A model generated the notes under the pieces. It had not been told where the DNA came from. It ran no database searches and saw only the letters and a list, made by a program, of their open reading frames with translations. Both the position numbers and the translations under genes were made by a program. This document shows positions 1 through 20,164 of a DNA stretch of 20,164 nt, one piece after another. The stretch is from positions 1 to 20,164 of the IMG/VR virus record IMGVR_UViG_3300030419_000659. One strand, 5' to 3'. Within the stretch, counting starts at the first letter, position 1. Each line of letters starts with the position of its first letter. The stretch comes from a virus.

Positions 1-459
1 TGGACCTTTAATAGAGAGCCTCACTATGAGTTTGTACCCGATACAAATGATGAGATACCTATAGCTAATAATATACTACAAATAAAGCTATCTGAAACTG
101 GTACTAATGCACAGTATGATGGGGTTAGAAGAGATGGTAAATTATATGATAGACTTCATCACAGATATACTTGGCCCGATCATAGTAAAGTAGAGTGCGA
201 TGTGATATGGGAATTCGATTGGGTAGATATACCTGAACCTATACAGAACTTCATTGTAGCTAGAGCTGCTAGCATTACATCTCAAAGAATTGTAGGTGAT
301 GGTAATCAGTATGATATATTATCTCAACAAGAAGCTTATGCCAGATCAACTGCCTTAGAATATGAAACCTCACAAGGTGAGTATACAATCTTCGGACACC
401 CATACGATAAATCTAACTACTACGCTAGTTACAAACCGTTCCAAGCACTTCAAAGATAA
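1..459 (+). CDS. Tail tubular protein A (T7 gp11-like), 5' truncated
   Basis: This is the C-terminal part of the tail tubular protein A (adaptor/gatekeeper) that sits between portal and nozzle in T7-like virions. The frame is open from base 1 to a TAA at 457-459, so the start lies outside the window; the ATG-like positions inside it, such as the GTG at 202, are not real starts. About 152 residues are visible. They include a Trp/Asp-rich strand region (WEFDWVDIP) followed by PEPIQNFIVARAASITSQRIVGD and a Gln/Glu-rich helix with QQEAYARSTALEYE, which is the usual C-terminal helical region of this family. The stop overlaps the next start by one base (TAATG), and the next gene is tail tubular protein B, as in T7. 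Seen: open frame and motifs. Known: gp11 family role. The assignment rests on both motif resemblance and gene order. Confidence 0.87.
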   Translation, partial: WTFNREPHYEFVPDTNDEIPIANNILQIKLSETGTNAQYDGVRRDGKLYDRLHHRYTWPDHSKVECDVIWEFDWVDIPEPIQNFIVARAASITSQRIVGDGNQYDILSQQEAYARSTALEYETSQGEYTIFGHPYDKSNYYASYKPFQALQR

Positions 460-7207: not shown

Positions 7208-7208
7208 T

Positions 7209-10200
7209 ATGGAAAAAGAAGAAGAACAACTGCTATCTCAAGCAGTAATACCACCAGACTTAGATCCTCTAGACTATATAAATTCACACCCTGAAGGAAA
7301 CATAGATGAAAGTGGTACTGTCGGCCCTGATAGCTCTGAAGTCGTACAACCTGAAGTTGTAGAACCTCCTACTAGAGGTACTTACGCTGCTCCCTTTCAA
7401 AGTAGGATTGGTAATAGTACAGTAGATCTTACCAATGAAGTGAATCAAAAACAGATGAAATCTGAATATGATGAATGGTGGAACTTTGGTAAGAAGCGTG
7501 GATTCTTAGGTGTGCCTTATATATCTGATGAATTCAAAGGTGAACGTGATAAACTAAAGGATGCATGGTATCGTAAATATCATGGTATGAGTTTAGAAGA
7601 GTTTGAAGCAGCAAGAACTGAAGATATAAGAAAGAATGGAGGCTTCTATCCAGGTGCTAATAATCCATTAGAGACCATGAAGCAGAACTTTGAAGGTTTA
7701 TCAGTACCAGGATTAGCTTATGCTGATTTCGCTATGGACGCACTAGGTACTGTAGTACCAGGTATGGATAAAGTAGATGATAGATGGGATGAAGCTACGA
7801 AGTTAGATAATGAGTTATTCCAAACTACTAGACAAGTACTTTCTGTTGTATTACCTGCTATCCATGCTGGACAGATGACTTCTGCAGGTTTAAGATCTTA
7901 TGGCGTTGGTCAATTCCCACTTGTTCAAAAATGGCTTACTAGGATAGGAGCTTATGGATTAGCTGATGGTCTTGTAACAGTACTTAGTGATACAAGTGAG
8001 GATCATAACGCAGCATATACAGTATCTAATTTAGTACCAGGTATGTTTGGTCCTAAAGGATTCATGCCTATACCAGAATCATGGAAGACTAAAGAATCTC
8101 AGAGCCCAGCAGCTCGTAAGATGATGAACTTCTATGAAAATACTGCTCTTAGTACAGTAGGTACTATTCTTGGTGCATTTATAGATGCTAAATCTGCTAT
8201 TAAAAAATCAACGGATTTCATTGAACCTATTGATGAATCAGCTGCTAAATATAAACGTGTTGAAACTCTTAAAGAATCAGAACCTGATCTCCTCATAGAA
8301 CTACAAGATCTTAATACAAAATTATCTTCTGGAACTCTTAATAGACAAGTTGAGAACCAATTAGTTAATAGAGTATTAGAGATAGAAGATCAATTAGGTA
8401 TAGGAACAGGTGTAGAAGGTGCAGTTAGAAGAAAGGAATTAGGATTTAATGTAGAGGCTGATGCAGCTGCAAGACGTAAGGTACAAGATCCTAACTTCGA
8501 TCCATCTGAATTAGATCCTGACATAACACCTGGTCTTGTTGATCCAGCTAGTTCTGCTAGATCAGTACCTCCTCCTGCTAATGTAGCTAGGAATATAGCT
8601 GATACAACTGCTATTAAAAATGGTACTTCTGTAGGTGACCCAGCTCCTATCATAACAGAAGCTATGAGAGAGAAAGGTCTCATGGTAGGGAATAAATCCC
8701 GTGATGCTGTTATGGGTGTAGCTGAAGAAACTAGAGATATAGGTAGATTTAATGCTGTTGTAGATGGTATCAGATATACCTCTAAACAGATGAACGCTGC
8801 AGCATGGGATATATACACAAGTATTATAGCTGCTGATAATATAGATGATGTAAGAGCTTTATTCTTTGAAAATAGAGATGTTAAGAATTTCTTACTTGGT
8901 AGGTTCCAGGTAGAGAGTATAAACGAAGAACAAGCAAGAGCCGCTGCATTCGCTCTAAGAGACCTTACTGATAGATTCCTTGGAAGAGAGGTTACAGAAG
9001 CATCTGCGAGGGTTATGGACACGTTAGGTAGAGAATCTGCTACACTAGCTGAGACTATACAAAAAGGTGGTCCTTATGTAGATGATGATAGAGTTATGGA
9101 TCTCATTATTGATAAGATGCAATTCTTATTAGATGAGTATGCACTTAATAAATATCTATCTGGTTGGAGTTTAAGGAATAAGAACTGGTTTGATCAAGTA
9201 CCTCCTAAAGATTTCGATGATGTAGTAGAGCAATTAACTCAAGAATTTACTAATGCAGAGAATGCTATACATGCTAGAAACTTAAGATTCACTGAAACTC
9301 TGAAAGAAATTAAACATACTAAACCACATTTCTTACGTCCACTAGTCGATGCTTATGCACATACCAATGGTAATGTAGATACTTTAGCTAAGTTAAATGA
9401 ATATGCTAAAGGGCAAATATCCCCATGGTCTATGCTTAAGAGCCCTGATCCTAAACAGATGAGTCTCTTTGCTAAGGCTACATGGAGTATTGTGATGAAC
9501 AATGTTCTTAGTGGTTTATCTGCAATCAGAGCTACCTTTGGTAACGCTTATAACTTAACTGTTAAGCCTATTACACAGATACTAGGACATGGTATTTGGG
9601 GTTCAACTGATGGTTTTGAAGGTGTAAAGCGTACAATGTATGCTAATGGTGCTATATTTGAGACTAATAGAAGAGCTTTAGATGATGCCTTAACGATGAT
9701 GAAGAAAGCTCATAAAGATCCTGAAATGATGATGAAAGCCTACCGTAAGGACTTCCAAATGCAGTCCACTAAAGAGTGGGAAATCATGGATGAGATGAGA
9801 GCTGCTAAAGAAATAGAAGGTGACTTTGGTTATGTACTTCAACATGATCTAGTCAGTGGTATGAGAGATCTTGGTAAGCATCCAGCCATGAGATATGGTA
9901 TGACTGGACTGGTATTCCCTGATGCCTATGCTTCTACTATGTTGGCTCATTATCTAGCTAGAGTAAGAGCATATGATGATGTAGTTAGTGAGCTTGGTTA
10001 TTTTAAAAGATCTAATGTTCTTGTAGCTGAGGCAAAACACTACAGGAATATGTTTGATGCTAATGGTCTTATTAAAGATGATGTACTTAGAGCAATAGCT
10101 GGTGAGGTTCAACTTAACTTAGATGATGGACTTGCTACCTGGTTAAATAAAGGTACTACAGCTTATCCTATAACTAAGTTCTTAATGATGTTCCCTAGAA

Positions 10201-11483
10201 CAGCTAGTAATGCTGTTAAGATGGCATCTTCTTGGACTCCATTTTCATTAATACCTGGTTTTAATAAGTATAGTAAAACTATATATGCCAGAACTGATGA
10301 TCAGATTGCTAAAGTATTAGCTGAACATGGCATTGATATGGCTACTACACCTAATGCTAGGGTTATCTTTGAAAACCTAAGAGCTGAGTATACTGGTAGA
10401 CTAGCATTTAGTACCTTACTAACTGGTACTTTATGGCAGTATGCGATGGCAGGTAACATCAGAGGTAGTGGTCACTATAATGCATCACGTAGAAATAAAG
10501 AAAGAGATATGTTTGGTTATCAACCTTGGACTGTTAATATAGGTGGTAAGTGGGTTGAATATCCAGAACAATTAAGACCTATATTAGGACCATTAGGTGA
10601 TATGGCTTATTATGCTAGTGATTTGAATGAGCATATATTAGCTAATTGGCAAGCTAAAATAGCTTGGAGTCTAAGTGCTACATTCTTAAACAATTCACCA
10701 CTTCAAGGATTTGAGCCACTTATAGCTATAACTAATGGTGATCTTAGTGGTTGGAATAGAATGATAGCTAATACTACAAGAGCTACACTACCTTTAAGTG
10801 GTGGTGCTGGTGTCTTAGCTAATGCTATCTCTAGTTCCCAGAAAGACTTACAAGGTGAAATACATGAATATCTAGCAAATAGATTACCAGGATTCAACCA
10901 TGTCTTACCAGAACAGATTGATATATTTACAGGAACACCACTTAATGATATTAATCAACCATTCTTAAGGATGTTGAATGCTCTGAGTCCTGTTAAGATT
11001 AGTGGTACATCTGAACCTTGGAGAATATGGCTACAAGAAATTCAATGGGATGGCCTAAGTAGACTTCGTAGAGACTCAACAGGAGCTTATGAATATTCTC
11101 CTAAAGAAAGAGAACTTATTTATAAGTATATAGGTGAACAGCAGATCTATAAAAAGATTGAGAAGTTAATGAAGTCTAAGAGGTATAATGCTGAAATTAA
11201 AGCACTACGTAATCATAGAAAACAGAATCATGACCTAGAAAGTGAGCAATTAGAGATTGATAAAAAGAAGCTACCTGTTTATTCAGAAATCAATAGGATT
11301 GTTAAAGAAGCTCAAATTATAGCTGAACAAAGACTATTGAAAGAGCAGCCCGCAATTGCTGATACAATCAGAATGCAACAAGTTATTAACTTTGAAATGC
11401 AGAAAGGTAATGTACAAAAAGCTGGTGAATTACAGAAAAAAGAATTAGATAAAAAGAATCTTTTACAGTACAATAACAATTAA
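7209..11483 (+). CDS. Internal virion protein / large ejected core protein (T7 gp16-like)
   Basis: Largest internal core protein, expected to be ejected and to span the periplasm and inner membrane during DNA entry. It is 1424 residues from the ATG at 7209 (T7 gp16 is 1318). The N-terminus is acidic and Pro-rich (residues 1-60), followed by a Trp-rich segment (EYDEWWNFGKKRGFLGVPYI). I cannot see a lytic transglycosylase domain where T7 gp16 has one. Residues roughly 200-250 are semi-hydrophobic (TRQVLSVVLPAIHAG). The middle is long and helical, and the region after residue 750 (KATWSIVMNNVLSGLSAIRA) resembles the gp16 family's conserved C-terminal half. A hydrophobic stretch lies near residues 1061-1085 (LAFSTLLTGTLWQYAMAG), followed by RPILGPLGDMAYYASDLNEH, also family-like. 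The last 130 residues are very Lys/Glu/Gln-rich and likely coiled coil. The gene is placed correctly between gp15-like and fibre genes. Confidence 0.82.
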   Translation: MEKEEEQLLSQAVIPPDLDPLDYINSHPEGNIDESGTVGPDSSEVVQPEVVEPPTRGTYAAPFQSRIGNSTVDLTNEVNQKQMKSEYDEWWNFGKKRGFLGVPYISDEFKGERDKLKDAWYRKYHGMSLEEFEAARTEDIRKNGGFYPGANNPLETMKQNFEGLSVPGLAYADFAMDALGTVVPGMDKVDDRWDEATKLDNELFQTTRQVLSVVLPAIHAGQMTSAGLRSYGVGQFPLVQKWLTRIGAYGLADGLVTVLSDTSEDHNAAYTVSNLVPGMFGPKGFMPIPESWKTKESQSPAARKMMNFYENTALSTVGTILGAFIDAKSAIKKSTDFIEPIDESAAKYKRVETLKESEPDLLIELQDLNTKLSSGTLNRQVENQLVNRVLEIEDQLGIGTGVEGAVRRKELGFNVEADAAARRKVQDPNFDPSELDPDITPGLVDPASSARSVPPPANVARNIADTTAIKNGTSVGDPAPIITEAMREKGLMVGNKSRDAVMGVAEETRDIGRFNAVVDGIRYTSKQMNAAAWDIYTSIIAADNIDDVRALFFENRDVKNFLLGRFQVESINEEQARAAAFALRDLTDRFLGREVTEASARVMDTLGRESATLAETIQKGGPYVDDDRVMDLIIDKMQFLLDEYALNKYLSGWSLRNKNWFDQVPPKDFDDVVEQLTQEFTNAENAIHARNLRFTETLKEIKHTKPHFLRPLVDAYAHTNGNVDTLAKLNEYAKGQISPWSMLKSPDPKQMSLFAKATWSIVMNNVLSGLSAIRATFGNAYNLTVKPITQILGHGIWGSTDGFEGVKRTMYANGAIFETNRRALDDALTMMKKAHKDPEMMMKAYRKDFQMQSTKEWEIMDEMRAAKEIEGDFGYVLQHDLVSGMRDLGKHPAMRYGMTGLVFPDAYASTMLAHYLARVRAYDDVVSELGYFKRSNVLVAEAKHYRNMFDANGLIKDDVLRAIAGEVQLNLDDGLATWLNKGTTAYPITKFLMMFPRTASNAVKMASSWTPFSLIPGFNKYSKTIYARTDDQIAKVLAEHGIDMATTPNARVIFENLRAEYTGRLAFSTLLTGTLWQYAMAGNIRGSGHYNASRRNKERDMFGYQPWTVNIGGKWVEYPEQLRPILGPLGDMAYYASDLNEHILANWQAKIAWSLSATFLNNSPLQGFEPLIAITNGDLSGWNRMIANTTRATLPLSGGAGVLANAISSSQKDLQGEIHEYLANRLPGFNHVLPEQIDIFTGTPLNDINQPFLRMLNALSPVKISGTSEPWRIWLQEIQWDGLSRLRRDSTGAYEYSPKERELIYKYIGEQQIYKKIEKLMKSKRYNAEIKALRNHRKQNHDLESEQLEIDKKKLPVYSEINRIVKEAQIIAEQRLLKEQPAIADTIRMQQVINFEMQKGNVQKAGELQKKELDKKNLLQYNNN

Positions 11484-11488
11484 CATAA

Positions 11489-14404
11489 ATGGCTGTTACA
11501 GAACAATCGTATGCGGGTGATGGTTCTCAAACCAATTACCCATTCACATTTCCATATTTAAAGAGTACTGATATCCAAGTTCAACTGGATCAAACAAGTA
11601 CTACGAATTGGTCTTTGGCCAATGCGACGACAATTCAATTCACCGCACCGAGTGGAGGGGCCACTACCACACAAGAAGCTGGAGGTGCCCCCAAATCTGG
11701 TGTAGCAATAAAAATACTAAGAGACACGAATGTTGACAACCTGACAGCCACCTTTTATGCAGGCTCAGCTATAAAATCAGAAGATCTGAACGATAACTAT
11801 ACACAAAACTTATATAAGACACAAGAGATAGGTAATAGATCCTTCCAGAATACTGGTACTTCTACCATGATAGGCCATCTTCAGATGGGTGAAGATACTA
11901 CTATTAAATTTGAAGGAGCCACCGACAACGCTCATGAAACTACTCTTACTGTTGTTGACCCTACAGCTGATCGCACTATCACCCTACCTAATGTTACAGG
12001 TACGGTAGTAACGACAGGTGATACAGGAACAGTTGCCCATGCTATGTTAGCAGGCGACGCTGTAGATGGAGATAATATAGCTGATAATTCTGTCAACTCT
12101 GAGCATTATGTTGATGGTAGTATCGATAGAGTACACCTAGAAGCTGATATTATAGATGGTACAAAATTAGCAGATAATGCTGTCAATACTGAACATATAA
12201 CAACTGGTGCTGTTGATAGTTCTAAAATAGCAGATGGGACTATTGTTAATGCCGATGTTAGTGCAAATGCAGGTATTGCATATACTAAACTAGATGTATG
12301 TCCACAGCATAAAATACTAGTAGGTAATGCTTCAGAAACACCTACACCTGTTACTATGTCAGGTGATGCTACCATAACAAGCACAGGTGAGATAACTATA
12401 GCTAATGATGCTGTAGAACAGTCTATGATAGCTAATGACGCAGTAGGTGCAGATCAACTTGCAGCTGATGCTGTAGTTAATGCTTCTGTAGCTGCAGGGG
12501 CAGCAATTGCTCATAATAAATTAGCAAACGTAACGGATGGACAGATACTTGTAGGTAATGGTTCTAACGTACCTACTGCAGTAGCAGTTTCAGGTGATGT
12601 AACCTTAGCAAACACAGGTGCTGTAACTATAGCTAATACTGCTGTAGAAGAAGGTATGTTAGCATCTGGTGCTGTAACAGAAACTAAGATAGGAAATGAC
12701 CAAGTTACAGCAGATAAACTAGCAGATCATGCTAGTACTGATTCAAGTAGAGCTGTAACAACAGATCACATCAGAGATAATGCAATTACAATTGCTAAGA
12801 TTGGATGTGAAGAAACTACTCTTACTGTTAATAGTGATGTCAAATTACCTACATCTAAGGCAGTAGCAGATCATGTAAGTAGTGTTGTCAATGCGCTTGG
12901 TGGTTTCGTTGCAATTAATGGACCTACTAACTTCCCTGCTACACAACCATCTCAAGGTGTAGTTGTCAGTATTAAAGATGTTGGTTCAGGATTTACGACC
13001 AGTTCTAATGAAATAACCATCACAAATGGAGCTGGTACAAATAAGAATGTAAAGATTACAGACTTTCCTTCTGAATATGCAGCAGCAACATTAGTAGATG
13101 ACACTGGTCTACAGGTCACTTCAGATATTAATAACAGTACAAGTGGAACACCTGCTGTTCATGTCTATAAATATCACAAGCAGTTAGCCAAAGAAAGTGA
13201 TGTTAAAGCACTAAGTGATGACATCAATAATTTCAATGAAAGATATAGAACAGCTGCTAATAGAACTGCAGATAACTCTGACACTAACCATGATGGAGAT
13301 CTCTTCTACGATCAATCTGCTAATAAGATGTATGTCTATGATGGGGCATATAACTCAGGTGGTAGTTGGAAAGAGGTAACATCAACAGGTCAGTTTAAGA
13401 TACTGACTATGGTTACTAAAGATGCTACATCTGGTTTAACCTTAAATGGACCAGCAGATGGTGGTACTGATATAGTAGAGTTTGATTTAAGAGATGGTAG
13501 TAATGCTGCTTCCGTAACTCAAGCTGCTCAATTATTGATTAGTATTAATGGTGTAATTCAGAAAGCTAATTCAGGTACTACTATTAGCGGATCTGATGAA
13601 GGATTCTGTTTAGTAGATAGTAATACTATTAAGTTTGCTACAGCTCCTAATAATGGAGATAGTATATTTGTACACCAATCAGGTTCAGCAGTAACTCTTA
13701 GTGTACCAGCTGATGGGTCAATTACAGAGGCTATGCTTAACGCTAATGCTCCTACAAATGACCATGTACTAACAGCTGATTCTTCTGCTGCAAGTGGGTT
13801 TAAATGGGCTGCAACAGCAGCTGGAGTAGGCGGTGCCTCAGGAGCTGACTTCAATGACGATGTTAAACTACGCTTTGGTCATGATGACGGAGGAAGTGGT
13901 GGAGATGTCGATAGCATACAAGGTCAACTTTGGTGGGATGAAACTAATAATTATTTCAACCTTGGATTAAACACAGGCTCTACTCATAAAATAGATATCA
14001 GTGCTCAGACAGTTGAGATAAGAGGTGTAAATAGAAGTTCTAATATGGCGATCTTCCGTGCAACAGCAGGGCAAGATTTATTCTACAGTACAAGTAAGAA
14101 GTTTGAAACCACTAATACGGGAGTTACCATAACTGGTGATTTAGATCCTGCGGCTGATAGTTCACATGATCTTGGAACTAGTGCTGTTAGATGGCAGAAT
14201 GGTTACTTTGATACCTTGTACGGTGATGGCTCAAACTTAACAGGTGTAGCTTCAGCTACTGCAGATGGTTGTATGTATGAGAATGATCAAACTATTAGTA
14301 ATGCATACACAATAGCAGCTAATAAAGGAGCACATAGTGTTGGACCTGTAACTGTTGGTAACACTGTAACAATTTCAAATAACGCAAGATGGGTGATTAG
14401 CTAA
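11489..14404 (+). CDS. Main tail fibre protein (T7 gp17-like N-terminus)
   Basis: Trimeric fibre that attaches to the tail and contacts the host. Residues 1-125 form the T7-type anchoring domain: SYAGDGSQTNYPFTFPYLKS, later VAIKILRDTNVDNLTATFYAGSAI and EDLNDNYTQNLYKTQEI. Residues 150-180 are a beta segment (TLPNVTGTVVTTGDTG) common in phage fibres. Residues 190-440 are built of short repeats of the type 'DNAV...IADGT', and include a 77-residue tandem duplication (248-401). Further on come a 'FNERYRTAAN...DGDLFYD' element near residues 580-615 and a distal segment with SSHDLGTSAVRWQNGYFDTL and YGDGSNLTGV, typical of marine phage fibres. The C-terminus (AANKGAHSVGPVTVGNTVTI) forms a small beta tip; there is no S74 chaperone. 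No Shine-Dalgarno is visible before the ATG. At 971 residues it exceeds T7 gp17 (553). The anchoring domain is well supported; the receptor is unknown. Confidence 0.9.
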   Translation: MAVTEQSYAGDGSQTNYPFTFPYLKSTDIQVQLDQTSTTNWSLANATTIQFTAPSGGATTTQEAGGAPKSGVAIKILRDTNVDNLTATFYAGSAIKSEDLNDNYTQNLYKTQEIGNRSFQNTGTSTMIGHLQMGEDTTIKFEGATDNAHETTLTVVDPTADRTITLPNVTGTVVTTGDTGTVAHAMLAGDAVDGDNIADNSVNSEHYVDGSIDRVHLEADIIDGTKLADNAVNTEHITTGAVDSSKIADGTIVNADVSANAGIAYTKLDVCPQHKILVGNASETPTPVTMSGDATITSTGEITIANDAVEQSMIANDAVGADQLAADAVVNASVAAGAAIAHNKLANVTDGQILVGNGSNVPTAVAVSGDVTLANTGAVTIANTAVEEGMLASGAVTETKIGNDQVTADKLADHASTDSSRAVTTDHIRDNAITIAKIGCEETTLTVNSDVKLPTSKAVADHVSSVVNALGGFVAINGPTNFPATQPSQGVVVSIKDVGSGFTTSSNEITITNGAGTNKNVKITDFPSEYAAATLVDDTGLQVTSDINNSTSGTPAVHVYKYHKQLAKESDVKALSDDINNFNERYRTAANRTADNSDTNHDGDLFYDQSANKMYVYDGAYNSGGSWKEVTSTGQFKILTMVTKDATSGLTLNGPADGGTDIVEFDLRDGSNAASVTQAAQLLISINGVIQKANSGTTISGSDEGFCLVDSNTIKFATAPNNGDSIFVHQSGSAVTLSVPADGSITEAMLNANAPTNDHVLTADSSAASGFKWAATAAGVGGASGADFNDDVKLRFGHDDGGSGGDVDSIQGQLWWDETNNYFNLGLNTGSTHKIDISAQTVEIRGVNRSSNMAIFRATAGQDLFYSTSKKFETTNTGVTITGDLDPAADSSHDLGTSAVRWQNGYFDTLYGDGSNLTGVASATADGCMYENDQTISNAYTIAANKGAHSVGPVTVGNTVTISNNARWVIS
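12230..12691 (+). repeat. Two tandem 231-bp (77-residue) units inside the main fibre
   Basis: Unit 1 is 12230-12460 and unit 2 is 12461-12691. Both keep the same protein layout: Val-Asn-Ala plus Val, an Ala-rich 'AGIAYTKL / AAIAHNKL' helix, 'ILVGN', 'VSGDVT / MSGDAT', 'TIAN.AVE' and a closing 'GA..' segment. The DNA copies have diverged, so the duplication is not recent. The repeats probably lengthen the fibre shaft. Confidence 0.7.
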
Positions 14405-15681
14405 TGGCAATTACAATTGATGGAACTGCGAATACCATTACAAATCTCGCAGCTGGTGGACTACCAGATAACTCAGTAGATAACGGCACGATGGCAGATG
14501 ATGCTATTGGAGTAGCTGAATTATCTGCTACAGGTACAGCAAGTTCAAGTACATTCCTACGTGGAGATAATGCTTGGGCTGCTCCTCCTTCAGGTTTAAC
14601 TGTAGAAAGTACTGAGGAGAATACTTATGGTGGAACAAATGCTGGTGAAGATATAACTTCAGCAACTAGAAGTACTCTAATAGGATTTGATGCTGGTAAA
14701 AATATAACTGAAGGCGGTATGAATACTGCTATTGGACGTAATTCTTTAGCAACAATAACCACTGGCGCAAAATGTACAGCTATTGGTAATGGAGCTTTAG
14801 CTACCACTACTGTTGGAGAGCAAGTAGCTGTAGGTCACGATGCTTTATATAATCAATCTAGTGGTGATGGAAAAAATACTGCTATAGGTTTTAACGCAGG
14901 TAATGCAGCAACTACAGCAAAAGAAAATATTTATATTGGATATCATGCTGGTAAAAGCACAGGTGGTGCTGATACTGGATATAGAAACGTAGCTATTGGT
15001 TATTATGCTCAAGGTGGTGGAACCACTGTATCAGGTAATCATAATGTTGGCTGCGGTAACGGTACTTGGGAAGATTTAACTACAGGTAATGGGAATACTG
15101 CATTTGGAAGTGCTGCAGGTTCTGAAGTTAGCACCGGTGATTATAATGTTCTAATTGGTCATTTAGCAGGTGTAGGAGGATCTCCATCCGGTAATGTCAA
15201 TACTCACGATGGAATTGTCTGTCTTGGAGATAATAATATTAGTAATTTCTATTGTGCTGATACATCTATCTCATCATCTGACGAAAGGGATAAAGCTGAT
15301 ATTACAGATTTCACTGCTGGTTTAGGATGGATTAAAGCTTTAAGACCTGTTACCTATCGTTGGGATAAAAGAGACTGGTATTACACAGAAAGCGATTCTG
15401 GAACTGGAAAGATAACTAGAACTGCTATAACAAAAGATGGTTCTAAAAAGAAAAATAAACAACATGTAGGTTTTGTTGCACAGGAAGTATTAGCAGTTGA
15501 ACAAGCTAATGGATTCGCAGCAAATAAAGATAATATGTTAACTGTTCATCTTAATGAAGATGATACAGCATATGGAATGAAATACGAACGTCTTGTCCCT
15601 ATTCTTGTGAATGCAATTAAAGAACTTTCTACTGAGGTTGATACATTGAAAACTAAAGTAGCAGCACTGGAGGCAGGTTAG
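14404..15681 (+). CDS. Tail fibre-like protein with YadA-type head repeats and S74 chaperone
   Basis: Fibre or spike protein of 425 residues. Residues 1-60 are a short fibre N-terminus with the repeat type seen in the main fibre (LPDNSVDNGTMADDAIGVAE) and a 'FLRGDNAWAAPP' turn. Residues about 90-258 carry around ten repeats of the pattern N-T/V-A-I-G-x-x-A, the pattern of the left-handed beta-roll heads of trimeric YadA-like adhesins. Residues 290-425 are a peptidase S74 (endosialidase-type) intramolecular chaperone. The SSDERDK motif holds Ser292 and Lys297 in the spacing of the autocleavage dyad, with HVGFVAQEV downstream and a C-terminal trimeric coiled coil ending TLKTKVAALEAG. In the family, the chaperone folds the trimer and then cuts itself off, here probably at Ser292/Asp293. 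The ATG overlaps the upstream TAA by one base, with a moderate GGGTGA ahead. Domain calls are strong; binding target unknown. Confidence 0.88.
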   Translation: MAITIDGTANTITNLAAGGLPDNSVDNGTMADDAIGVAELSATGTASSSTFLRGDNAWAAPPSGLTVESTEENTYGGTNAGEDITSATRSTLIGFDAGKNITEGGMNTAIGRNSLATITTGAKCTAIGNGALATTTVGEQVAVGHDALYNQSSGDGKNTAIGFNAGNAATTAKENIYIGYHAGKSTGGADTGYRNVAIGYYAQGGGTTVSGNHNVGCGNGTWEDLTTGNGNTAFGSAAGSEVSTGDYNVLIGHLAGVGGSPSGNVNTHDGIVCLGDNNISNFYCADTSISSSDERDKADITDFTAGLGWIKALRPVTYRWDKRDWYYTESDSGTGKITRTAITKDGSKKKNKQHVGFVAQEVLAVEQANGFAANKDNMLTVHLNEDDTAYGMKYERLVPILVNAIKELSTEVDTLKTKVAALEAG

Positions 15682-15683
15682 TG
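15650..15683 (+). repeat. 34-bp gene-junction repeat, copy A
   Basis: This segment encodes the last residues (TKVAALEAG) of the first S74 fibre, its stop, the GGAGG site and the next start codon. It matches 16885-16918 at 32 of 34 positions; both differences are transitions (c/t and g/a), the second making TAG-GTG versus TAA-ATG. Confidence 0.85.
15669..15673 (+). promoter_or_regulatory. Shine-Dalgarno GGAGG for the GTG-started fibre gene
   Basis: GGAGG is seven bases before the GTG at 15681 and lies inside the codons for the C-terminal Leu-Glu-Ala of the upstream protein. It supports the GTG start, which overlaps the upstream TAG by one base. Confidence 0.75.
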
Positions 15684-16916
15684 GCAGAAATTAAAATTAA
15701 AACACCTGACGGTAATAATCACGTCAGTTTAACTACAGCAAATGCTAGTGGTAATGCAACAGTAACACTACCTAAAGCTAGTATAGATTTCTCTAGTGCA
15801 GGTACTGATGGTCAGTTCTTGAAAACAGATGGTGCAGGAACACTAAGCTTTGCTACTGTTACAAGTGGAGCAACAATTAATAATGCTACAGCAAACGAAT
15901 TAGTTACAGTTGCTTCAACTACAACTCAATTAGATGCTGAATCTAAACTAACCTTCGACGGTACTAACTTATTTATAGGTGGAGGTGGTGGTAGATCTAC
16001 TGCTGGTAACTCTCATAAGTTCATAATTGAAGATACTGGAGCAGCTCCTAGTACTGCTATGGCAGTTATTTCTAACACTAATGGTGCTGATGGTCCTGCA
16101 ATACGTCTCGGTAAAACTAGAGCAACAAGTTTAGGTGGTAATACTGCAACTAATACAGATGATAACCTAGGACAACTTGAGTGGCTTGGTAATGATGGTT
16201 CTTCTTTAAGATGTGCAGGCCGTCTTCGAGTTAAACAAGAATCAGATACAGATACTAATAGTGTTCCAGGTTACATGCAGTTCATGGTAACTGGTGATGG
16301 CGAGACTAACCCTTACGAACACATGAGGCTTAGGGCTGGTCCTACTGGTACTGACGGAAGGCTTATAATAGCTCCTCCAATCACTCAAAATGGATCAGCT
16401 ACAGATGGTTTAAATCAAGGTGAGATAAACTTATCAAACTGGAATATAAACCAAGATGATCGTTATGCCAGAATCTATTCTTATAACTCTGGTAATAACT
16501 ATACTATTGGAGTTAAATTCCAAAGTGGTAAGACTGGAACAACATGGATGAATATAAAAGGTAATGCTGAAATTGATGGTAACTTTAATGATACATCAGA
16601 TATAGCATTAAAAGAAAATGTTGTTGCTTTAAGCTCTACTTGGAACGCTGTTAAACAATTAAAGCCTTGTACTTTTGATTGGAAACCTCAGACAGATGTC
16701 AAAGATTCTAGTAAAGTAATCGTAGATGGTTGGTCTAGTGTAGGTTTTATAGCACAAGAAGTAGAATCAGTAATACCTCTTCTAGTATCTGGAGAAGATG
16801 GTTCGAAAAGTATTAACACTATTGGACTTGTTTCCCAATTAACAAAAGCCCTACAAGAAGCTATGACAAAGATTGAAACACTCGAAACTAAAGTAGCAGC
16901 ATTGGAGGCAGGTTAA
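15681..16916 (+). CDS. Second tail fibre-like protein with S74 chaperone (GTG start)
   Basis: Fibre or spike protein of 411 residues. Residues 1-60 are a conserved beta start (IKIKTPDGNNHVSLTTANAS, later DGQFLKTDGAGTLSF) common in marine phage fibres. Residues 80-300 form a beta-rich body with 'AESKLTFDGTNLFIGG', a Gly-rich loop, 'LEWLGNDGSS' and 'MQFMVTGDG'. These resemble fibre modules but give no clear enzymatic fold. Residues 303-411 are an S74 chaperone: Ser306-Asp307 and Lys311 keep the Ser-to-Lys spacing of the cleavage dyad, but the Arg usual in the SDxR motif is Ala309. VGFIAQEVESV follows, then a C-terminal coiled coil ending LETKVAALEAG. This C-terminus is nearly identical, in DNA too, to that of the preceding gene. 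The GTG start is supported by GGAGG and by the one-base TAGTG overlap. Cleavage is expected but less certain because of the substituted position. Confidence 0.85.
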   Translation: MAEIKIKTPDGNNHVSLTTANASGNATVTLPKASIDFSSAGTDGQFLKTDGAGTLSFATVTSGATINNATANELVTVASTTTQLDAESKLTFDGTNLFIGGGGGRSTAGNSHKFIIEDTGAAPSTAMAVISNTNGADGPAIRLGKTRATSLGGNTATNTDDNLGQLEWLGNDGSSLRCAGRLRVKQESDTDTNSVPGYMQFMVTGDGETNPYEHMRLRAGPTGTDGRLIIAPPITQNGSATDGLNQGEINLSNWNINQDDRYARIYSYNSGNNYTIGVKFQSGKTGTTWMNIKGNAEIDGNFNDTSDIALKENVVALSSTWNAVKQLKPCTFDWKPQTDVKDSSKVIVDGWSSVGFIAQEVESVIPLLVSGEDGSKSINTIGLVSQLTKALQEAMTKIETLETKVAALEAG

Positions 16917-16918
16917 TG
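16885..16918 (+). repeat. 34-bp gene-junction repeat, copy B
   Basis: Second copy of the junction segment at 15650-15683, at the end of the second S74 fibre. It again carries the C-terminal codons, stop, GGAGG (16904-16908, seven bases before the start) and the start codon of the following gene. The shorter GGAGGCAG core recurs at 18339-18346. Confidence 0.85.
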
Positions 16919-18169
16919 AGTATATTAAAAGTAGATAAGCTCCATAGTGAAAGTGGGGCTAACTCTAATATTGAATTAGATGATTCCAGAAATGCTACAT
17001 GTAAAGGGAATCTTACAACAGATGGAAATTTAGCTGTTACTGGTACTTCAACATTTACTGGTACAGTAACACTTCCATCGGGTACAACTAGTGATACTCT
17101 TTCGTTTCGTAATGTTATAATTAACGGTGCGATGCAAGTATCTCAAAGAGGTACTTCAGAAACAGGGATATCATCAGCAGGTGCTTTCAGAAAAGCTCCT
17201 GATAGGTTTAAGTTTAGTGTAGATGATGGTACATGGACTGCCTCACAAGATAGTTCTGGACCTCCTGGTTTTGCTAATTCTTATAAAGTTGATTGCACAA
17301 CTGCTGACACATCTATTGCAGCAGGTAATGAAGTTAAATTAGATACTAAAATAGAAGGTCAAGACTTACAACATTTCTGTAAAGGTACTTCTAGTGCAAA
17401 GAAATTCTGTTTACAATTCTGGGTAAAGAGTAATAAGACAGGTAATTATGCTGTTCAAATGAGAGATCAGGATAATACCAGACATGTTTGTCATTTATAT
17501 ACAATCAGTTCAGCTGATACTTGGGAACAAAAGAAGGTAGTATTCCCCGCTGATACTACAGGTGCTTTCGGTGATGATAATGGAAATTCATTAACTATTA
17601 ATTGGTATTTATCAGTAGGTACTAATAAAACAAGTGGTACTATGGATACAGCATGGGCTTCTGTTACTGATGCAAATATAGCGGCAGGACATAATGTAAA
17701 CTTAGCTGATTCTACAAGTAACTATTTTAACATAACTGGTATTCAACTTGAAGCTGCTGATGCATGTACTGACTTTGAACATAGATCATTTCAAGATGAA
17801 TTATGGAGATGTCAGAGATATTGTTTCATGGTTCAAGGTAATTCAGCAGGTGAACCTAGTGGTTTCTTAGGATATGTAACTAGTGATGGTAGTAATGGTA
17901 AATCTAGTTACGCAATACGGTTCAATCCTCCACTAAGGGCTGGTCCTGCATATAGTGACAGTGGAACTGGTATGAAAATGTATGCCTATACAAACTCAGG
18001 TAGCTCAGGCAGTGGAAGAACTATGCCTGTATATAACGCCAACCCTAGTGATAACTCTTGTACAAATGCAAGAGTAGAATTTGAAGTTACTGGACATGGT
18101 TCCCCAGGTACATGTGGACAGTTATACTTTATGGAAGCAGGTTGGATGAAATTCGATGCAGAACTATGA
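16916..18169 (+). CDS. Fibre-associated adhesin-like protein, Cys-rich
   Basis: A 417-residue protein of a family common next to fibres in marine phages. Residues 1-62 form a fibre-like start (ILKVDKLHSESGANSNIELD, then 'GNLTTDGNLAVTGTSTFTGT'), which probably joins a fibre or trimer. From residue 63 comes a conserved core: 'VIINGAMQVSQRGTS' (67-81) and 'APDRFKF' (94-100), then a beta-sandwich-like region ('FWVKSNKTGNY', 'WYLSVGT') and the signature 'FNITGIQLEAADACTDFEHR' (271-290) with 'RCQRYCF'. Such cores resemble carbohydrate-binding beta-sandwiches. The final 110 residues are Gly/Ser/Asn-rich and look like a variable tip. Ten cysteines are present (29, 127, 155, 165, 192, 284, 299, 303, 382, 400), unusual for a phage fibre. 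There is no S74 chaperone. The start at 16916 has GGAGG and a one-base overlap. Family resemblance is good; sugar binding is inferred. Confidence 0.75.
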   Translation: MSILKVDKLHSESGANSNIELDDSRNATCKGNLTTDGNLAVTGTSTFTGTVTLPSGTTSDTLSFRNVIINGAMQVSQRGTSETGISSAGAFRKAPDRFKFSVDDGTWTASQDSSGPPGFANSYKVDCTTADTSIAAGNEVKLDTKIEGQDLQHFCKGTSSAKKFCLQFWVKSNKTGNYAVQMRDQDNTRHVCHLYTISSADTWEQKKVVFPADTTGAFGDDNGNSLTINWYLSVGTNKTSGTMDTAWASVTDANIAAGHNVNLADSTSNYFNITGIQLEAADACTDFEHRSFQDELWRCQRYCFMVQGNSAGEPSGFLGYVTSDGSNGKSSYAIRFNPPLRAGPAYSDSGTGMKMYAYTNSGSSGSGRTMPVYNANPSDNSCTNARVEFEVTGHGSPGTCGQLYFMEAGWMKFDAEL

Positions 18170-18351
18170 CTATTAGATACAAAAAATTACCAAATCTTGA
18201 CGATGGTACAGAGGCGATGACAGTTCGTCGCATTGAAACAGGAGAGCCTGATGTATGTGTCCCAATTCATCCTCCTAGCTGTCTTACAAATACATATTAT
18301 GTTGAATACAAAGCCTGGTTAGACGCAGGTAACACACCGGAGGCAGCATAA
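18166..18351 (+). CDS. Small conserved-type protein between fibre genes (61 aa)
   Basis: Small soluble protein of unknown function. The ATG at 18166 overlaps the upstream TGA in the ATGA arrangement and is preferred; a longer in-frame version from 18112 would lie wholly inside the upstream gene. The N-terminal half is charged (RYKKLPNLDDGTEAMTVRR), the middle is Pro-rich with Cys (VCVPIHPPSC), and the C-terminus is 'YVEYKAWLDAGNTPEAA'. A closing 'YxAWLxxGNTPEPA' pattern is frequent in short phage proteins beside fibre genes, which suggests a role in fibre assembly or as a minor fibre component; that is inference. There is no clear Shine-Dalgarno, so translation is probably coupled to the gene before. 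Its last codons contain the GGAGGCAG site for the next gene. Confidence 0.7.
   Translation: MTIRYKKLPNLDDGTEAMTVRRIETGEPDVCVPIHPPSCLTNTYYVEYKAWLDAGNTPEAA
18339..18343 (+). promoter_or_regulatory. Shine-Dalgarno GGAGG in the last codons of the 61-aa gene
   Basis: GGAGG lies eight bases before the ATG at 18352 and within the codons for Pro-Glu-Ala at the upstream C-terminus. The octamer GGAGGCAG is the same as at the two S74 fibre junctions. Confidence 0.75.
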
Positions 18352-19476
18352 ATGGCATTAACACAAATAAAAACAAATGCAATAGCAGATGATGCTGTGA
18401 CAGGAGCTAAGATAGCTGATGATACAGTAGCTGAAGCTAATATGGCTAATGATGCTATCAGTATAGCTGAAATTAAAGGTGATTCTGCTGGAGGTATACA
18501 TACCTTTGACGCAAATGGTAATCCAATGATTTTATCTACTGGTAGTGATGGACAAGTATTAACAGCAACAGGATCTGGAACACCTCCACAATTTGAAGAT
18601 TTACCTACAAGTGGAGCAACCTTATCTGGATCAACTAATGACACAGTTGTCACGGTTACAGGTGCTAACGCTATGCAAGGTGAATCCACTCTTAAATTTA
18701 CTAGCAATTATCTTCACCTAAATCACGCTAACGGTGGTGTAAGTTGGGGTACAGGAACACCAGGCTCATTTGGTACTTCTCCTTCAATTGGAATAGCTGA
18801 ACAGGCTGGATACCATTCAAGTGGTTCTGCAGTTGACGATTTAGTTATAGGTGCAAAGCATCAGAAAGCTGTCATTATTGGTACAACTTCTAATGCTTCT
18901 GGTGGACTAACTACTAGATTTTCAGTTGAAAATGATGGAGATGTACAGGTAAAAACTGGAAACCTAGTAATAGGAACATCTGGTAAAGGTATTGACTTTA
19001 GTGCAGATGCAAGTAACGCTGGAATGGATAATGAGCTCCTCGACGATTATGAAGAGGGTTATTTCACGTTTACTATGGACAGTGAAAACGGTGACGCTTG
19101 GACGTCAAGGGCTGGTTATACAAAGATGCGTTATGTAAAAATAGGTAATATGGTTACGTTTAGTGGTAAATATGAAACCAACTCTACTGGTGGTTCCCCG
19201 AGTGGAAGACTGCAAATAACGGGATTACCATTCGCTTCAATTGCTGCTACTGGTGATGCAAATAATACAAGGTCATTCCATGGATATATTAAAGGTATGT
19301 CCTCTGATGATAATATGATTATGCATCTATGGTGGATGGGTTCGAATAGCACAACCTTACTCGCTCACTCATTCTCTAATGATAACAATGGCGATATGCA
19401 ATCATTCACTACTTCTCAATTAGCTACATCCACCGTCTGGGAAGGCGACGTAACTGGAACTTATTTTACATCTTGA
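18352..19476 (+). CDS. Tail fibre-like protein with 'DDYEEG' C-terminal domain
   Basis: Fibre-like protein of 374 residues. Residues 1-45 consist of the same short repeats as the main fibre (NAIADDAVTGAKIADDTVAE), then 'GSDGQVLTATGSGTPPQFED', the usual linker in marine phage fibres. Residues 90-215 are beta-rich, with 'GESTLKFTSNYLHL' and 'GNLVIGTSGKGIDFSA'. Residues 228-374 begin with the marker 'ELLDDYEEG' followed by 'YTKMRYVKIGNMVTFSGKY' and 'LQITGLPF'. This is a C-terminal domain seen in many phage fibre and adhesin proteins, usually taken as the receptor-binding or trimer tip. Trp-rich positions (HLWWMG, VWEGD) may form part of the binding face; this is inference. There is no S74 motif. 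It starts directly after the 61-aa gene's stop with a good GGAGG site. Family call is secure; target unknown. Confidence 0.82.
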   Translation: MALTQIKTNAIADDAVTGAKIADDTVAEANMANDAISIAEIKGDSAGGIHTFDANGNPMILSTGSDGQVLTATGSGTPPQFEDLPTSGATLSGSTNDTVVTVTGANAMQGESTLKFTSNYLHLNHANGGVSWGTGTPGSFGTSPSIGIAEQAGYHSSGSAVDDLVIGAKHQKAVIIGTTSNASGGLTTRFSVENDGDVQVKTGNLVIGTSGKGIDFSADASNAGMDNELLDDYEEGYFTFTMDSENGDAWTSRAGYTKMRYVKIGNMVTFSGKYETNSTGGSPSGRLQITGLPFASIAATGDANNTRSFHGYIKGMSSDDNMIMHLWWMGSNSTTLLAHSFSNDNNGDMQSFTTSQLATSTVWEGDVTGTYFTS

Positions 19477-19479
19477 ACA

Positions 19480-19782
19480 ATGGCATTAACAGAAACAATC
19501 GAATACGACAAAATAGAAGTTGTCGGTGAATTTAAACACATACAAGTAAAGAAAGTGCATGTCATCAAAAGGGATGGCAGCGATGTTGCACGAGAAAATG
19601 AAAGGTATAGTTTAAATTGCGGGAAAATAAATTCAAGTAATGAATTCATTGCTAATCCTTTAACAAAAGAACCAGATGGAGTTACAGATATACCTGATGA
19701 GGTAAAGAATATTGCTAATCTTGTTTGGACTCAATCAGTTAAAGATGCATGGAAGGCTAAACTTATAGCAGATAAGGGGTAA
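19480..19782 (+). CDS. Small conserved-type protein of unknown function (100 aa)
   Basis: A 100-residue protein that I recognise only as a type of small protein found beside fibre genes in marine phages. The N-terminal half is a beta-like region with alternating Val/Ile and charges (IEYDKIEVVGEFKHIQVKKV, then 'VIKRDGSDVARE'). The C-terminal half is acidic and helical ('DIPDEVKNIANLVWTQSVKDAWKAK'), with no membrane segment or catalytic motif. No Shine-Dalgarno precedes the ATG at 19480, which lies three bases after the upstream stop. It starts with the same ATGGCATTAACA as the preceding gene. Function unknown; gene position suggests a virion-assembly or late-stage role, but nothing in the sequence proves it. 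Confidence 0.7.
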   Translation: MALTETIEYDKIEVVGEFKHIQVKKVHVIKRDGSDVARENERYSLNCGKINSSNEFIANPLTKEPDGVTDIPDEVKNIANLVWTQSVKDAWKAKLIADKG

Positions 19783-20164
19783 TGTCCATCATCCTCCCAC
19801 GCCCTAACTTACCTAAGGCTCTAGACATCCCTCAGATGTACCTGAGACAGCCTACAGCAGACGTTCCAGCCTTCCGCCCCATAGTGGTCCCTCCAGCCGA
19901 TTTGGAGCGTCCTGAGGAGACTGAGGCTACGGAGGAAGAGAAGAAGACAGAACAACCAGAACAACCCACCCTTAAAATACCTGTTATCGATATACAGATG
20001 CCAGTACCGGAAACAGCGGTAGTGGTAACTGCAGTAACAACAGCTGTCATAGCTGTAACAACAACTACTGTTACTCAATCTTTATTCGAACCAATCAAGA
20101 AAAAGGTTCAGAAACAGCTACAAGCCAAAGTTAATAAATGGAAGGAAAACAGGAAGAAAAAAAA
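19782..20164 (+). CDS. Pro-rich, single-membrane-segment phage protein, 3' truncated by the window end
   Basis: An open frame starts at ATG 19782 (one-base overlap with the upstream TAA) and stays open to the window edge, giving at least 127 residues. Residues 1-40 are Pro-rich (ILPRPNLPKALDIP, FRPIVVPPAD). Residues 42-62 are acidic (many Glu/Lys). Residues 78-98 are an uncharged hydrophobic segment with nine Thr, probably a membrane helix. Residues 106-127 are very basic (Lys/Arg). By the positive-inside rule the Lys-rich end would be cytoplasmic and the Pro-rich end outside or periplasmic. The architecture resembles a Pro-rich N-terminal/membrane/basic type I recall from cyanophages, annotated there as virion-associated. 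Its location after the fibres corresponds to the T7 holin/spanin area, so a lysis role is an alternative. The start region is more GC-rich than any neighbour. An AAGGGG purine run lies close to the start, so coupling is likely. Confidence 0.72.
   Translation, partial: MSIILPRPNLPKALDIPQMYLRQPTADVPAFRPIVVPPADLERPEETEATEEEKKTEQPEQPTLKIPVIDIQMPVPETAVVVTAVTTAVIAVTTTTVTQSLFEPIKKKVQKQLQAKVNKWKENRKKK

What the first reader, a model, noticed from the sequence alone, without database searches (positions are those of the whole stretch)
11489..19476. Array of five fibre or adhesin genes in a T7-like late region
T7 has one fibre gene here. This window has a gp17-like main fibre followed by four more fibre-type proteins, each with a different tip: YadA-like repeats plus S74, beta body plus S74, Cys-rich adhesin core, and DDYEEG domain. 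Only the first has the T7-type anchoring domain. The others must attach differently, bind to the main fibre or nozzle, or act as branched or alternative fibres. This suggests a multi-tip host-recognition apparatus.
Basis: partly seen in the sequence, partly recalled or inferred. Interest (0 to 1): 0.7.

Follow-up and report, generated by a model that had tools for sequence, protein, structure and literature searches.

The report
Five-slot fibre array of T7-like cyanophage
Right after its main tail-fibre gene, a marine T7-like phage carries four more surface-binding protein genes; the same set, in the same order, occurs in related ocean phages, and comparison suggests the main fibre is a hub that carries exchangeable binding tips.

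Summary
Five fibre- or adhesin-type genes (F1-F5, 11489-19476) follow gp16, and only F1 has the T7 gp17 anchor. The gene set is not unusual. P-SSP7 has gp17 plus four annotated tail-fibre genes, and one metagenomic contig carries all five slots in the same order.

What looks new is a grammar. In 22 of 22 T7-like loci whose gp17 ends in a particular about 65-residue domain ("CAP", as here), a fixed-order array follows. When gp17 lacks a CAP end, the array is missing in 21 of 23; the two exceptions carry CAP on another protein upstream of slot proteins. On a gp16 tree, 12 independent contrasts gave about 11 agreeing and none opposing (p about 0.001). Genes at the same array position share their first about 35 residues but not their C-termini. 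In array-less phages, tip types found in slots 2-5 are often fused to the end of gp17.

I infer that CAP is a docking end for slots 2-4. Slot 5 is CAP-independent. Two tips have dedicated small partner genes. S74 is a predicted cleaved-off chaperone, not a tip. The "Cys-rich core" is a carbohydrate-binding jelly roll. Docking is inferred, not shown; cassette linkage is the main rival.

The parts
11489..14404 (+). F1: gp17-type main fibre (971 aa). T7 anchor at residues 4-118; shaft repeats; second anchor-like domain at residues 675-754; C-terminal CAP at residues 903-970
   Evidence: Pfam PF03906 E 3.9e-13; own HMMs N1 and CAP; PDB 8i4m, fibre gp28 of cyanophage P-SCSP1u, E 6e-48 over residues 211-753
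14195..14401 (+). CAP: C-terminal ~65-residue domain of F1, proposed docking end for slots 2-4
   Evidence: CAP-ended F1 is followed by the array in 22/22 T7-like loci versus 2/23 without a CAP end; 12 independent contrasts on the gp16 tree
14404..15681 (+). F2, slot 2: N-module at residues 1-35 (MAITIDGTANTITNLAAGGLPD...), repeat body, C-terminal S74 chaperone (predicted cleavage before S292)
   Evidence: Pfam S74; Ser/Lys motif; slot-2 N-module; DNA island 14266-14509 (86%) shared with L251
15681..16916 (+). F3, slot 3: N-module (MAEIKIKTPDGNN...), beta body, C-terminal S74 chaperone (predicted cleavage before S306)
   Evidence: Pfam S74; motif; slot-3 N-module
16916..18169 (+). F4, slot 4: N-module (MSILKVDKLHSESG...), carbohydrate-binding-module jelly roll at residues 65-310, CQRY motif, C-terminal beta domain
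   Evidence: phrog_4492; AlphaFold2 model and Foldseek hits to CBM4/16/11; slot-4 N-module lies within the first 25 residues in 70 of 77 ORFs that have it
18166..18351 (+). s62: short partner gene of the F4-type tip (motif YxEYxxWxxxGNTPEAA)
   Evidence: 86 of 86 such short ORFs lie directly behind a CBM-type tip gene
18352..19476 (+). F5, slot 5: N-module MALTQI..., DDYEEG head (residues 228-335), CAP-independent
   Evidence: phrog_17970; HMM; slot-5 type gene present in 12/22 CAP and 13/22 non-CAP loci
19480..19782 (+). g100: small partner gene of the DDYEEG head (phrog_6228)
   Evidence: 81 of 87 g100 genes lie directly behind a DDYEEG gene; 33/43 DDYEEG genes are followed by g100 versus 2/1604 others
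19782..20162 (+). g127 (runs to the window end): conserved small gene that closes the array (phrog_9426); boundary marker, function unknown
   Evidence: phrog_9426 1.8e-41; follows the array in the complete loci

Best explanation
The array is a modular host-recognition cassette of T7-like, cyanophage-type phages. F1 is anchored to the adaptor and nozzle by its T7-type N-terminal domain (shown by homology). It carries no recognisable receptor-binding tip of its own and ends instead in CAP (shown). F2, F3 and F4 are adhesins, probably trimeric (by analogy). They attach through their own short, position-specific N-terminal modules to the CAP end of F1, or to one another behind it, so the main fibre becomes a hub with several tips (inferred). 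F2 and F3 are matured by self-cleavage of a C-terminal S74 chaperone (predicted from the intact motif). F4 has a carbohydrate-binding jelly-roll head (shown by predicted fold). F5 does not depend on CAP: such genes sit next to gp17 genes of every type, so it probably attaches elsewhere, for example at the nozzle or as a separate fibre (inferred). Its DDYEEG head is probably folded or assembled with the help of g100, and the F4-type head with s62 (inferred from near-exclusive gene pairing). Tips are exchanged between phages by recombination while the N-modules stay (shown as a pattern).
For: CAP-ended F1 is followed by slot-3/4 genes in 22/22 T7-like loci; F1 without CAP in 2/23, and both exceptions have CAP on a separate upstream protein (Fisher 7e-11; 9e-10 without loci fetched by the F4 query). 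The gp16 tree gives 12 independent contrasts, about 11 agree, 0 oppose, p about 0.001; for example P-SSP7 (CAP plus array) lies beside L062 (S74-ended, no array). The order is strict: slot 2 to 3, 41 times; 3 to 4, 30; 3 to 2, 4; 4 to 3 and 4 to 2, never. By position alone, the first 35 residues are 46/40/31% identical within positions 1/2/3, against 20-23% across positions and 19-21% at the C-termini. The gene directly behind a CAP-ended gene has a slot-2 N-module in 16/23 (T7-like) and 31/94 (other) cases, versus 10/851 and 12/3506 in background. Phages without the array often have the same tip types fused to F1: S74 in 8, DDYEEG in 5, CBM in 1 of 22. Partner genes. F4 fold.
Against: CAP and slots 2-4 are adjacent in the DNA, so they could move as one cassette without binding each other. 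CAP-like ends also occur on many small proteins of other phages, so CAP may be only a generic trimer end. Pfam finds no T4gp10-type branching domain in F1. The cryo-EM work on P-SCSP1u resolved only fibre N-termini (PMC10575957), so no structure shows extra fibres. Virion content of F2-F5 is unknown. The slot labels rest on small training sets (3-5 sequences) with a low bit threshold, although avoids them.
Confidence: 0.55

Rival explanations
1. Cassette linkage without docking. CAP is just a generic trimer end. The 3' end of F1 together with slots 2-4 is swapped as one DNA block between phages, and each slot protein attaches on its own to the nozzle, adaptor or capsid.
For: CAP and slot 2 are contiguous; the DNA island 14266-14509 shared with L251 spans exactly the end of F1 and the start of F2. 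The tail-fibre gene is among the core genes with incongruent trees in cyanopodoviruses (PMC4646655). CAP-like ends occur widely.
Against: With frequent recombination, arrays without CAP should appear, yet among 23 non-CAP loci the array was seen only where CAP sits on a neighbouring protein. Slot 5, a little further down, does not follow CAP (12/22 versus 13/22). Tips fused to F1 replace the array.
Confidence: 0.3
2. Alternative-fibre reservoir. Only one or two of the five proteins are displayed at a time, or some are not virion proteins at all but recombination stock.
For: Tips are highly exchangeable, with C-termini at about 20% identity. No virion data are at hand.
Against: All frames are open, stop-start overlaps suggest co-translation, slot order and N-modules are conserved over very divergent phages, and S74 catalytic residues are intact. 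No long invertible repeats and no invertase gene were seen in the window.
Confidence: 0.1
3. Serial chain. The slot proteins join end to end behind F1, as in the T4 long tail fibre, rather than branching from one hub.
For: The strict gene order slot 2 to 3 to 4 would suit a linear order; T4 genes 34 to 37 are a known precedent (own knowledge).
Against: F2-F4 each end in a chaperone or globular head instead of a CAP-like end, so F3 has no obvious site on F2. Slots can be lacking one at a time.
Confidence: 0.1

Closest known systems
Tail-fibre array of Prochlorococcus phage P-SSP7 (Autographiviridae, Tiamatvirus)
   Same: gp17 with T7 anchor and CAP end, followed by annotated tail-fibre genes with slot-2, slot-3, slot-4 and a second slot-4 N-module, then a g127 homologue
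   Different: Tips are short (proteins of about 190-210 aa) and unrelated in sequence to F2-F4; no S74, no CBM tip, no DDYEEG/g100 pair
IMGVR_UViG_3300030419_001808 (L164/L170/L251)
   Same: All five slots in order, s60 and g100, and g127 99% identical in protein
   Different: gp16 only about 22% identical; slot 3 has another tip without S74 and is followed by an extra 136-aa gene; F2-F5 13-37% identical overall
Synechococcus phage S-SBP1 and MedDCM-OCT-S45-C4 (Ashivirus)
   Same: CAP-ended gp17, DDYEEG+g100, slot 3 with S74, slot 4 with CBM
   Different: Three extra fibres instead of four; the DDYEEG tip sits in the slot-2 position
Anchor-branched and adapter receptor-binding-protein systems of Klebsiella KP32viruses, G7C, K1-5/SP6 (Latka et al. 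2019, PMC6872550)
   Same: T7-type anchor on the first protein (KP32), further proteins with short conserved N-terminal modules, exchangeable tips, occasional self-cleaving C-terminal chaperone
   Different: There the docking site is a T4gp10-like domain just behind the anchor, with one or two extra proteins; here the associated element is a C-terminal CAP, no T4gp10 domain is found by Pfam, and three slot proteins follow

Membership tests
T7-like cyanophage late region (Autographiviridae) | Gene order gp12-gp14-gp15-gp16-gp17 with homologous proteins | tested here: met
   ORFs; gp16 matches 48 phage records, all named after cyanobacteria or cyanophages, Tiamatvirus or uncultured phage, best DSL-LC07 and S-CBP1 at 37%; gp17
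T7-like cyanophage late region (Autographiviridae) | Phage RNA polymerase and a cyanobacterial host | not testable with these tools
   The record holds only 20,436 bases of the late region; host inferred only from relatives
T7 gp17-type tail fibre (PF03906) | N-terminal Phage_T7_tail domain in F1 | tested here: met
   E 3.9e-13, residues 6-118
T7 gp17-type tail fibre (PF03906) | N-terminal Phage_T7_tail domain in F2-F5 | tested here: not met
   No PF03906 hit at E up to 1; own N1 HMM finds none in F2-F5
Peptidase_S74 intramolecular chaperone (F2, F3) | S74 domain with catalytic Ser/Lys pair | tested here: met
   S292/K297 and S306/K311; that this pair is catalytic is own knowledge of phage endosialidases
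Peptidase_S74 intramolecular chaperone (F2, F3) | Actual self-cleavage | not testable with these tools
   Needs expression of the protein
Anchor-branched receptor-binding-protein system (KP32/G7C) | Anchor domain on the first protein only | tested here: met
Anchor-branched receptor-binding-protein system (KP32/G7C) | T4gp10-like branching domain in the first protein | tested here: inconclusive
   No Pfam hit at E up to 1; published detection used profile-profile search, which was not run here
Anchor-branched receptor-binding-protein system (KP32/G7C) | Conserved short N-terminal module on the secondary proteins | tested here: met
Anchor-branched receptor-binding-protein system (KP32/G7C) | Physical docking of the secondary proteins on the first | not testable with these tools
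   No complex prediction or binding data
Carbohydrate-binding module fold (F4) | CBM-type jelly roll | tested here: met
   pLDDT above 90 over about residues 100-280; Foldseek CBM4/16/11, E 4e-6 to 3e-5, TM to target 0.53-0.65
Carbohydrate-binding module fold (F4) | Sugar binding | not testable with these tools
   Needs a binding assay
YadA-like adhesin (F2) | YadA head or anchor model match | tested here: not met
   Only S74 found in Pfam at E up to 1

The most novel reading that the evidence does not exclude
Marine T7-like phages alternate between two fibre designs: a self-tipped gp17 and a CAP-ended hub gp17 that carries three slot-specific adhesins. CAP and three short N-terminal modules form a shared plug-and-socket code that also occurs in marine phages outside the T7-like set, and tip-specific small chaperones travel with particular heads.
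Probability: 0.4. Interest if true: 0.7.

Novelty: new variant of a known kind. Interest (0 to 1): 0.5.

Why it matters
How short-tailed ocean phages recognise their hosts with several fibre proteins is open: the available structure shows only the fibre base. The CAP and slot rule turns a row of hypothetical or tail-fibre annotations into a testable architecture. It predicts which genes are displayed on which part of the fibre, and it marks exchangeable tips and their partner genes. It would also let gp17 ends and slot modules be read in metagenomes to tell single-tip from multi-tip phages.

Tried and rejected
Searching viral contigs with the gp16 C-terminus gave no loci; g100 and the fibre pieces were used instead. 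The slot-4 N-module alone found nothing in the annotated phages by tblastn, and the slot-3 module found only P-SCSP1-group phages, so own HMMs were needed. Iterated HMMs for the slot-2 and slot-5 modules drift into the shaft repeats (AD-rich repeats), so slot calls were redone with models trained on isolates plus the window and then checked by position alone. The AlphaFold model of F5 is weak (pLDDT 64); its best fold matches include receptor-binding heads of TP901-1, a Dettilon tailspike and reovirus sigmaC, but at E 0.01-0.08, so no fold is claimed. A homologue of g100 or s62 with known function was not found in Pfam. One P-SCSP1u gene included in the gp12 comparison was not gp12 and was ignored. 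P-SSP7 virion proteomics was not found in the open papers; two relevant papers are not held. A gene-switching device was considered and rejected: no long invertible repeats and no invertase gene in the window.
Full report
What is there. The window is the late region of a T7-like phage: gp12 (459-3437), gp14, gp15, gp16 (7200-11483), then five fibre- or adhesin-type genes, a small gene inside the array and two small genes behind it. The source record is only 20,436 bases. gp16 matches only phages of marine or freshwater cyanobacteria and uncultured relatives, the best being Synechococcus phages DSL-LC07 and S-CBP1 at 37% identity; closer relatives exist in IMG/VR (58% and 52%). The host is therefore probably a picocyanobacterium, but this is inferred.

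Checking the observation. F1 has the T7 fibre anchor (Pfam, E 4e-13); F2 and F3 have a C-terminal S74 domain; F4 and F5 have no Pfam domain above cut-off but match phage PHROGs. F2-F5 have no T7 anchor even with an HMM built here from relatives. Three details change. The S74 domains keep the Ser/Lys pair (S292/K297, S306/K311), so they are predicted to be cut off and are not tips. F4 residues 65-310 fold as a carbohydrate-binding-module jelly roll (AlphaFold2, pLDDT above 90 over most of it; Foldseek best hits CBM4, CBM16 and CBM11, E 4e-6 to 3e-5). Small genes s62 (18166-18351) and g100 (19480-19782) belong to the set.

Is the set routine? Yes. P-SSP7 has gp17 and four annotated tail-fibre genes. 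S-SBP1 and MedDCM-OCT-S45-C4 have gp17 plus three. SS120-1 has several. P-SSP2 and NATL1A-7 have two and S-CBP1 has one. IMGVR_UViG_3300030419_001808 has all five slots in the same order, with g100 and g127 behind. The count varies from one to five or more, so the array as such is not new.

The grammar. HMMs for the F1 anchor, the F1 end (CAP), the slot N-modules and the tips were run over 348 loci. Among de-duplicated loci with gp16 followed by an anchored F1, all 22 with a CAP-ended F1 have slot-3/4 genes behind it; of 23 without a CAP end only two do, and in both (SS120-1 and L199) CAP lies on a separate protein upstream of slot proteins (Fisher p 7e-11; 9e-10 when loci fetched with F4 are left out). 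On a gp16 tree the F1 state changes 12-13 times. Independent pairs give 12 contrasts, of which about 11 agree and none oppose (p about 0.001). P-SSP7 and L062 are close in gp16 but differ in both traits. Two of the window's nearest gp16 relatives, L037 and L317, have a DDYEEG-ended F1 and no array, while a third, L095, has CAP and the array.

Slots. Direct transitions are slot 2 to 3 (41), 3 to 4 (30), 3 to 2 (4), and never 4 to 3 or 4 to 2. Taking genes only by position behind a CAP-ended F1, the first 35 residues are 46, 40 and 31% identical at positions 1, 2 and 3, against 20-23% across positions; residues 61-95 and the last 110 residues are at 17-21%. Thus N-modules are position-specific and conserved while tips are exchanged. 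Between the window and L251 the DNA island 14266-14509 (86%) covers the end of CAP and the first 35 residues of F2. The gene behind a CAP-ended gene carries a slot-2 N-module in 16/23 T7-like and 31/94 other cases, versus 10/851 and 12/3506 in background.

Tips fused to gp17. In loci without the array, F1 itself often ends in tip types that occur in slots 2-5: S74 in 8, DDYEEG in 5, CBM in 1 of 22. This is fusion evidence that places slot tips at the distal end of F1.

Partner genes. DDYEEG genes are followed by g100 in 33/43 cases in loci not fetched with g100, versus 2/1604 for other genes (p 1e-57); 81 of 87 g100 genes lie directly behind a DDYEEG gene. All 86 s62-type short genes lie directly behind a CBM-type tip. 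Loci L069 and L070 have two DDYEEG genes, one of them gp17, each with its own g100. A chaperone or assembly role is inferred; neither family has a meaningful Pfam match.

Slot 5 is different: MALTQ-type genes occur in 12/22 CAP and 13/22 non-CAP loci, so F5 does not depend on CAP.

Mechanism. The best reading is a hub: F1 anchored at the base, CAP at the far end, and slots 2-4 docking there through their N-modules. F5 is separate. This resembles the anchor-branched and adapter systems of Klebsiella and coli phages (PMC6872550), but the associated element is C-terminal and no T4gp10-like domain was found. The chief rival is that CAP and the array simply travel together as one DNA block. The lack of CAP-less arrays, the independence of the nearby slot 5 and the fused tips speak against it, but only binding or virion data can decide. 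The published P-SCSP1u structure resolves only fibre N-termini (PMC10575957); its fibre gp28 is a clear F1 homologue (PDB 8i4m).

Limits. Loci are fragments fetched by selected queries; slot thresholds are low; sequences are not independent beyond the tree test; the tree is a quick one with some long branches. No description of the CAP and slot rule was found in the open papers searched, which does not prove that none exists.

Noticed in passing
window 2847-3200 (gp12 residues ~797-914): The nozzle protein gp12 carries a ~115-residue insert near its C-terminus with two domains that resemble the T7 fibre anchor (E 3e-5 and 5e-7). The insert is absent from gp12 of P-SSP7, P-SSP2, S-CBP1 and S-SBP1 and has no match in the phage collection. 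It could be an extra docking or decoration site.
   Followed up: partly
window 13511-13750 (F1 residues 675-754): F1 holds a second, internal copy of an anchor-like domain; the same is seen in most gp17 relatives, with and without the array. Role unknown.
   Followed up: partly
window 19782-20162 versus L251 11061-11453: g127 is 99% identical in protein (91% in DNA over 469 bases) to that of a contig whose gp16 is only ~22% identical; both contigs end near here. Strong constraint or exchange at this boundary.
   Followed up: partly
L053 4419-5513, L247 1982-3223, L263 537-1715: Some relatives have an additional ~360-410 aa protein with its own T7-type anchor (C-terminus like ...RPRNVALLACIKY) before the main fibre: two anchored fibre types in tandem.
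   Followed up: no
L088, L096, L118, L124, L141, L154: Other phages carry long runs of ~120-170 aa genes starting with a ~150 aa protein that matches both the anchor and CAP models, mostly followed by CBM+s62 and a further CAP gene; looks like a miniature version of the same grammar.
   Followed up: no
L063 and L064, 199-aa gene before the DDYEEG gene: A 199-aa protein (MFKDLIWTKPNSLSADFCQHMIDKF...) sits among the fibre genes; by eye it resembles a 2-oxoglutarate/Fe(II) oxygenase, perhaps modifying fibres. Not tested.
   Followed up: no
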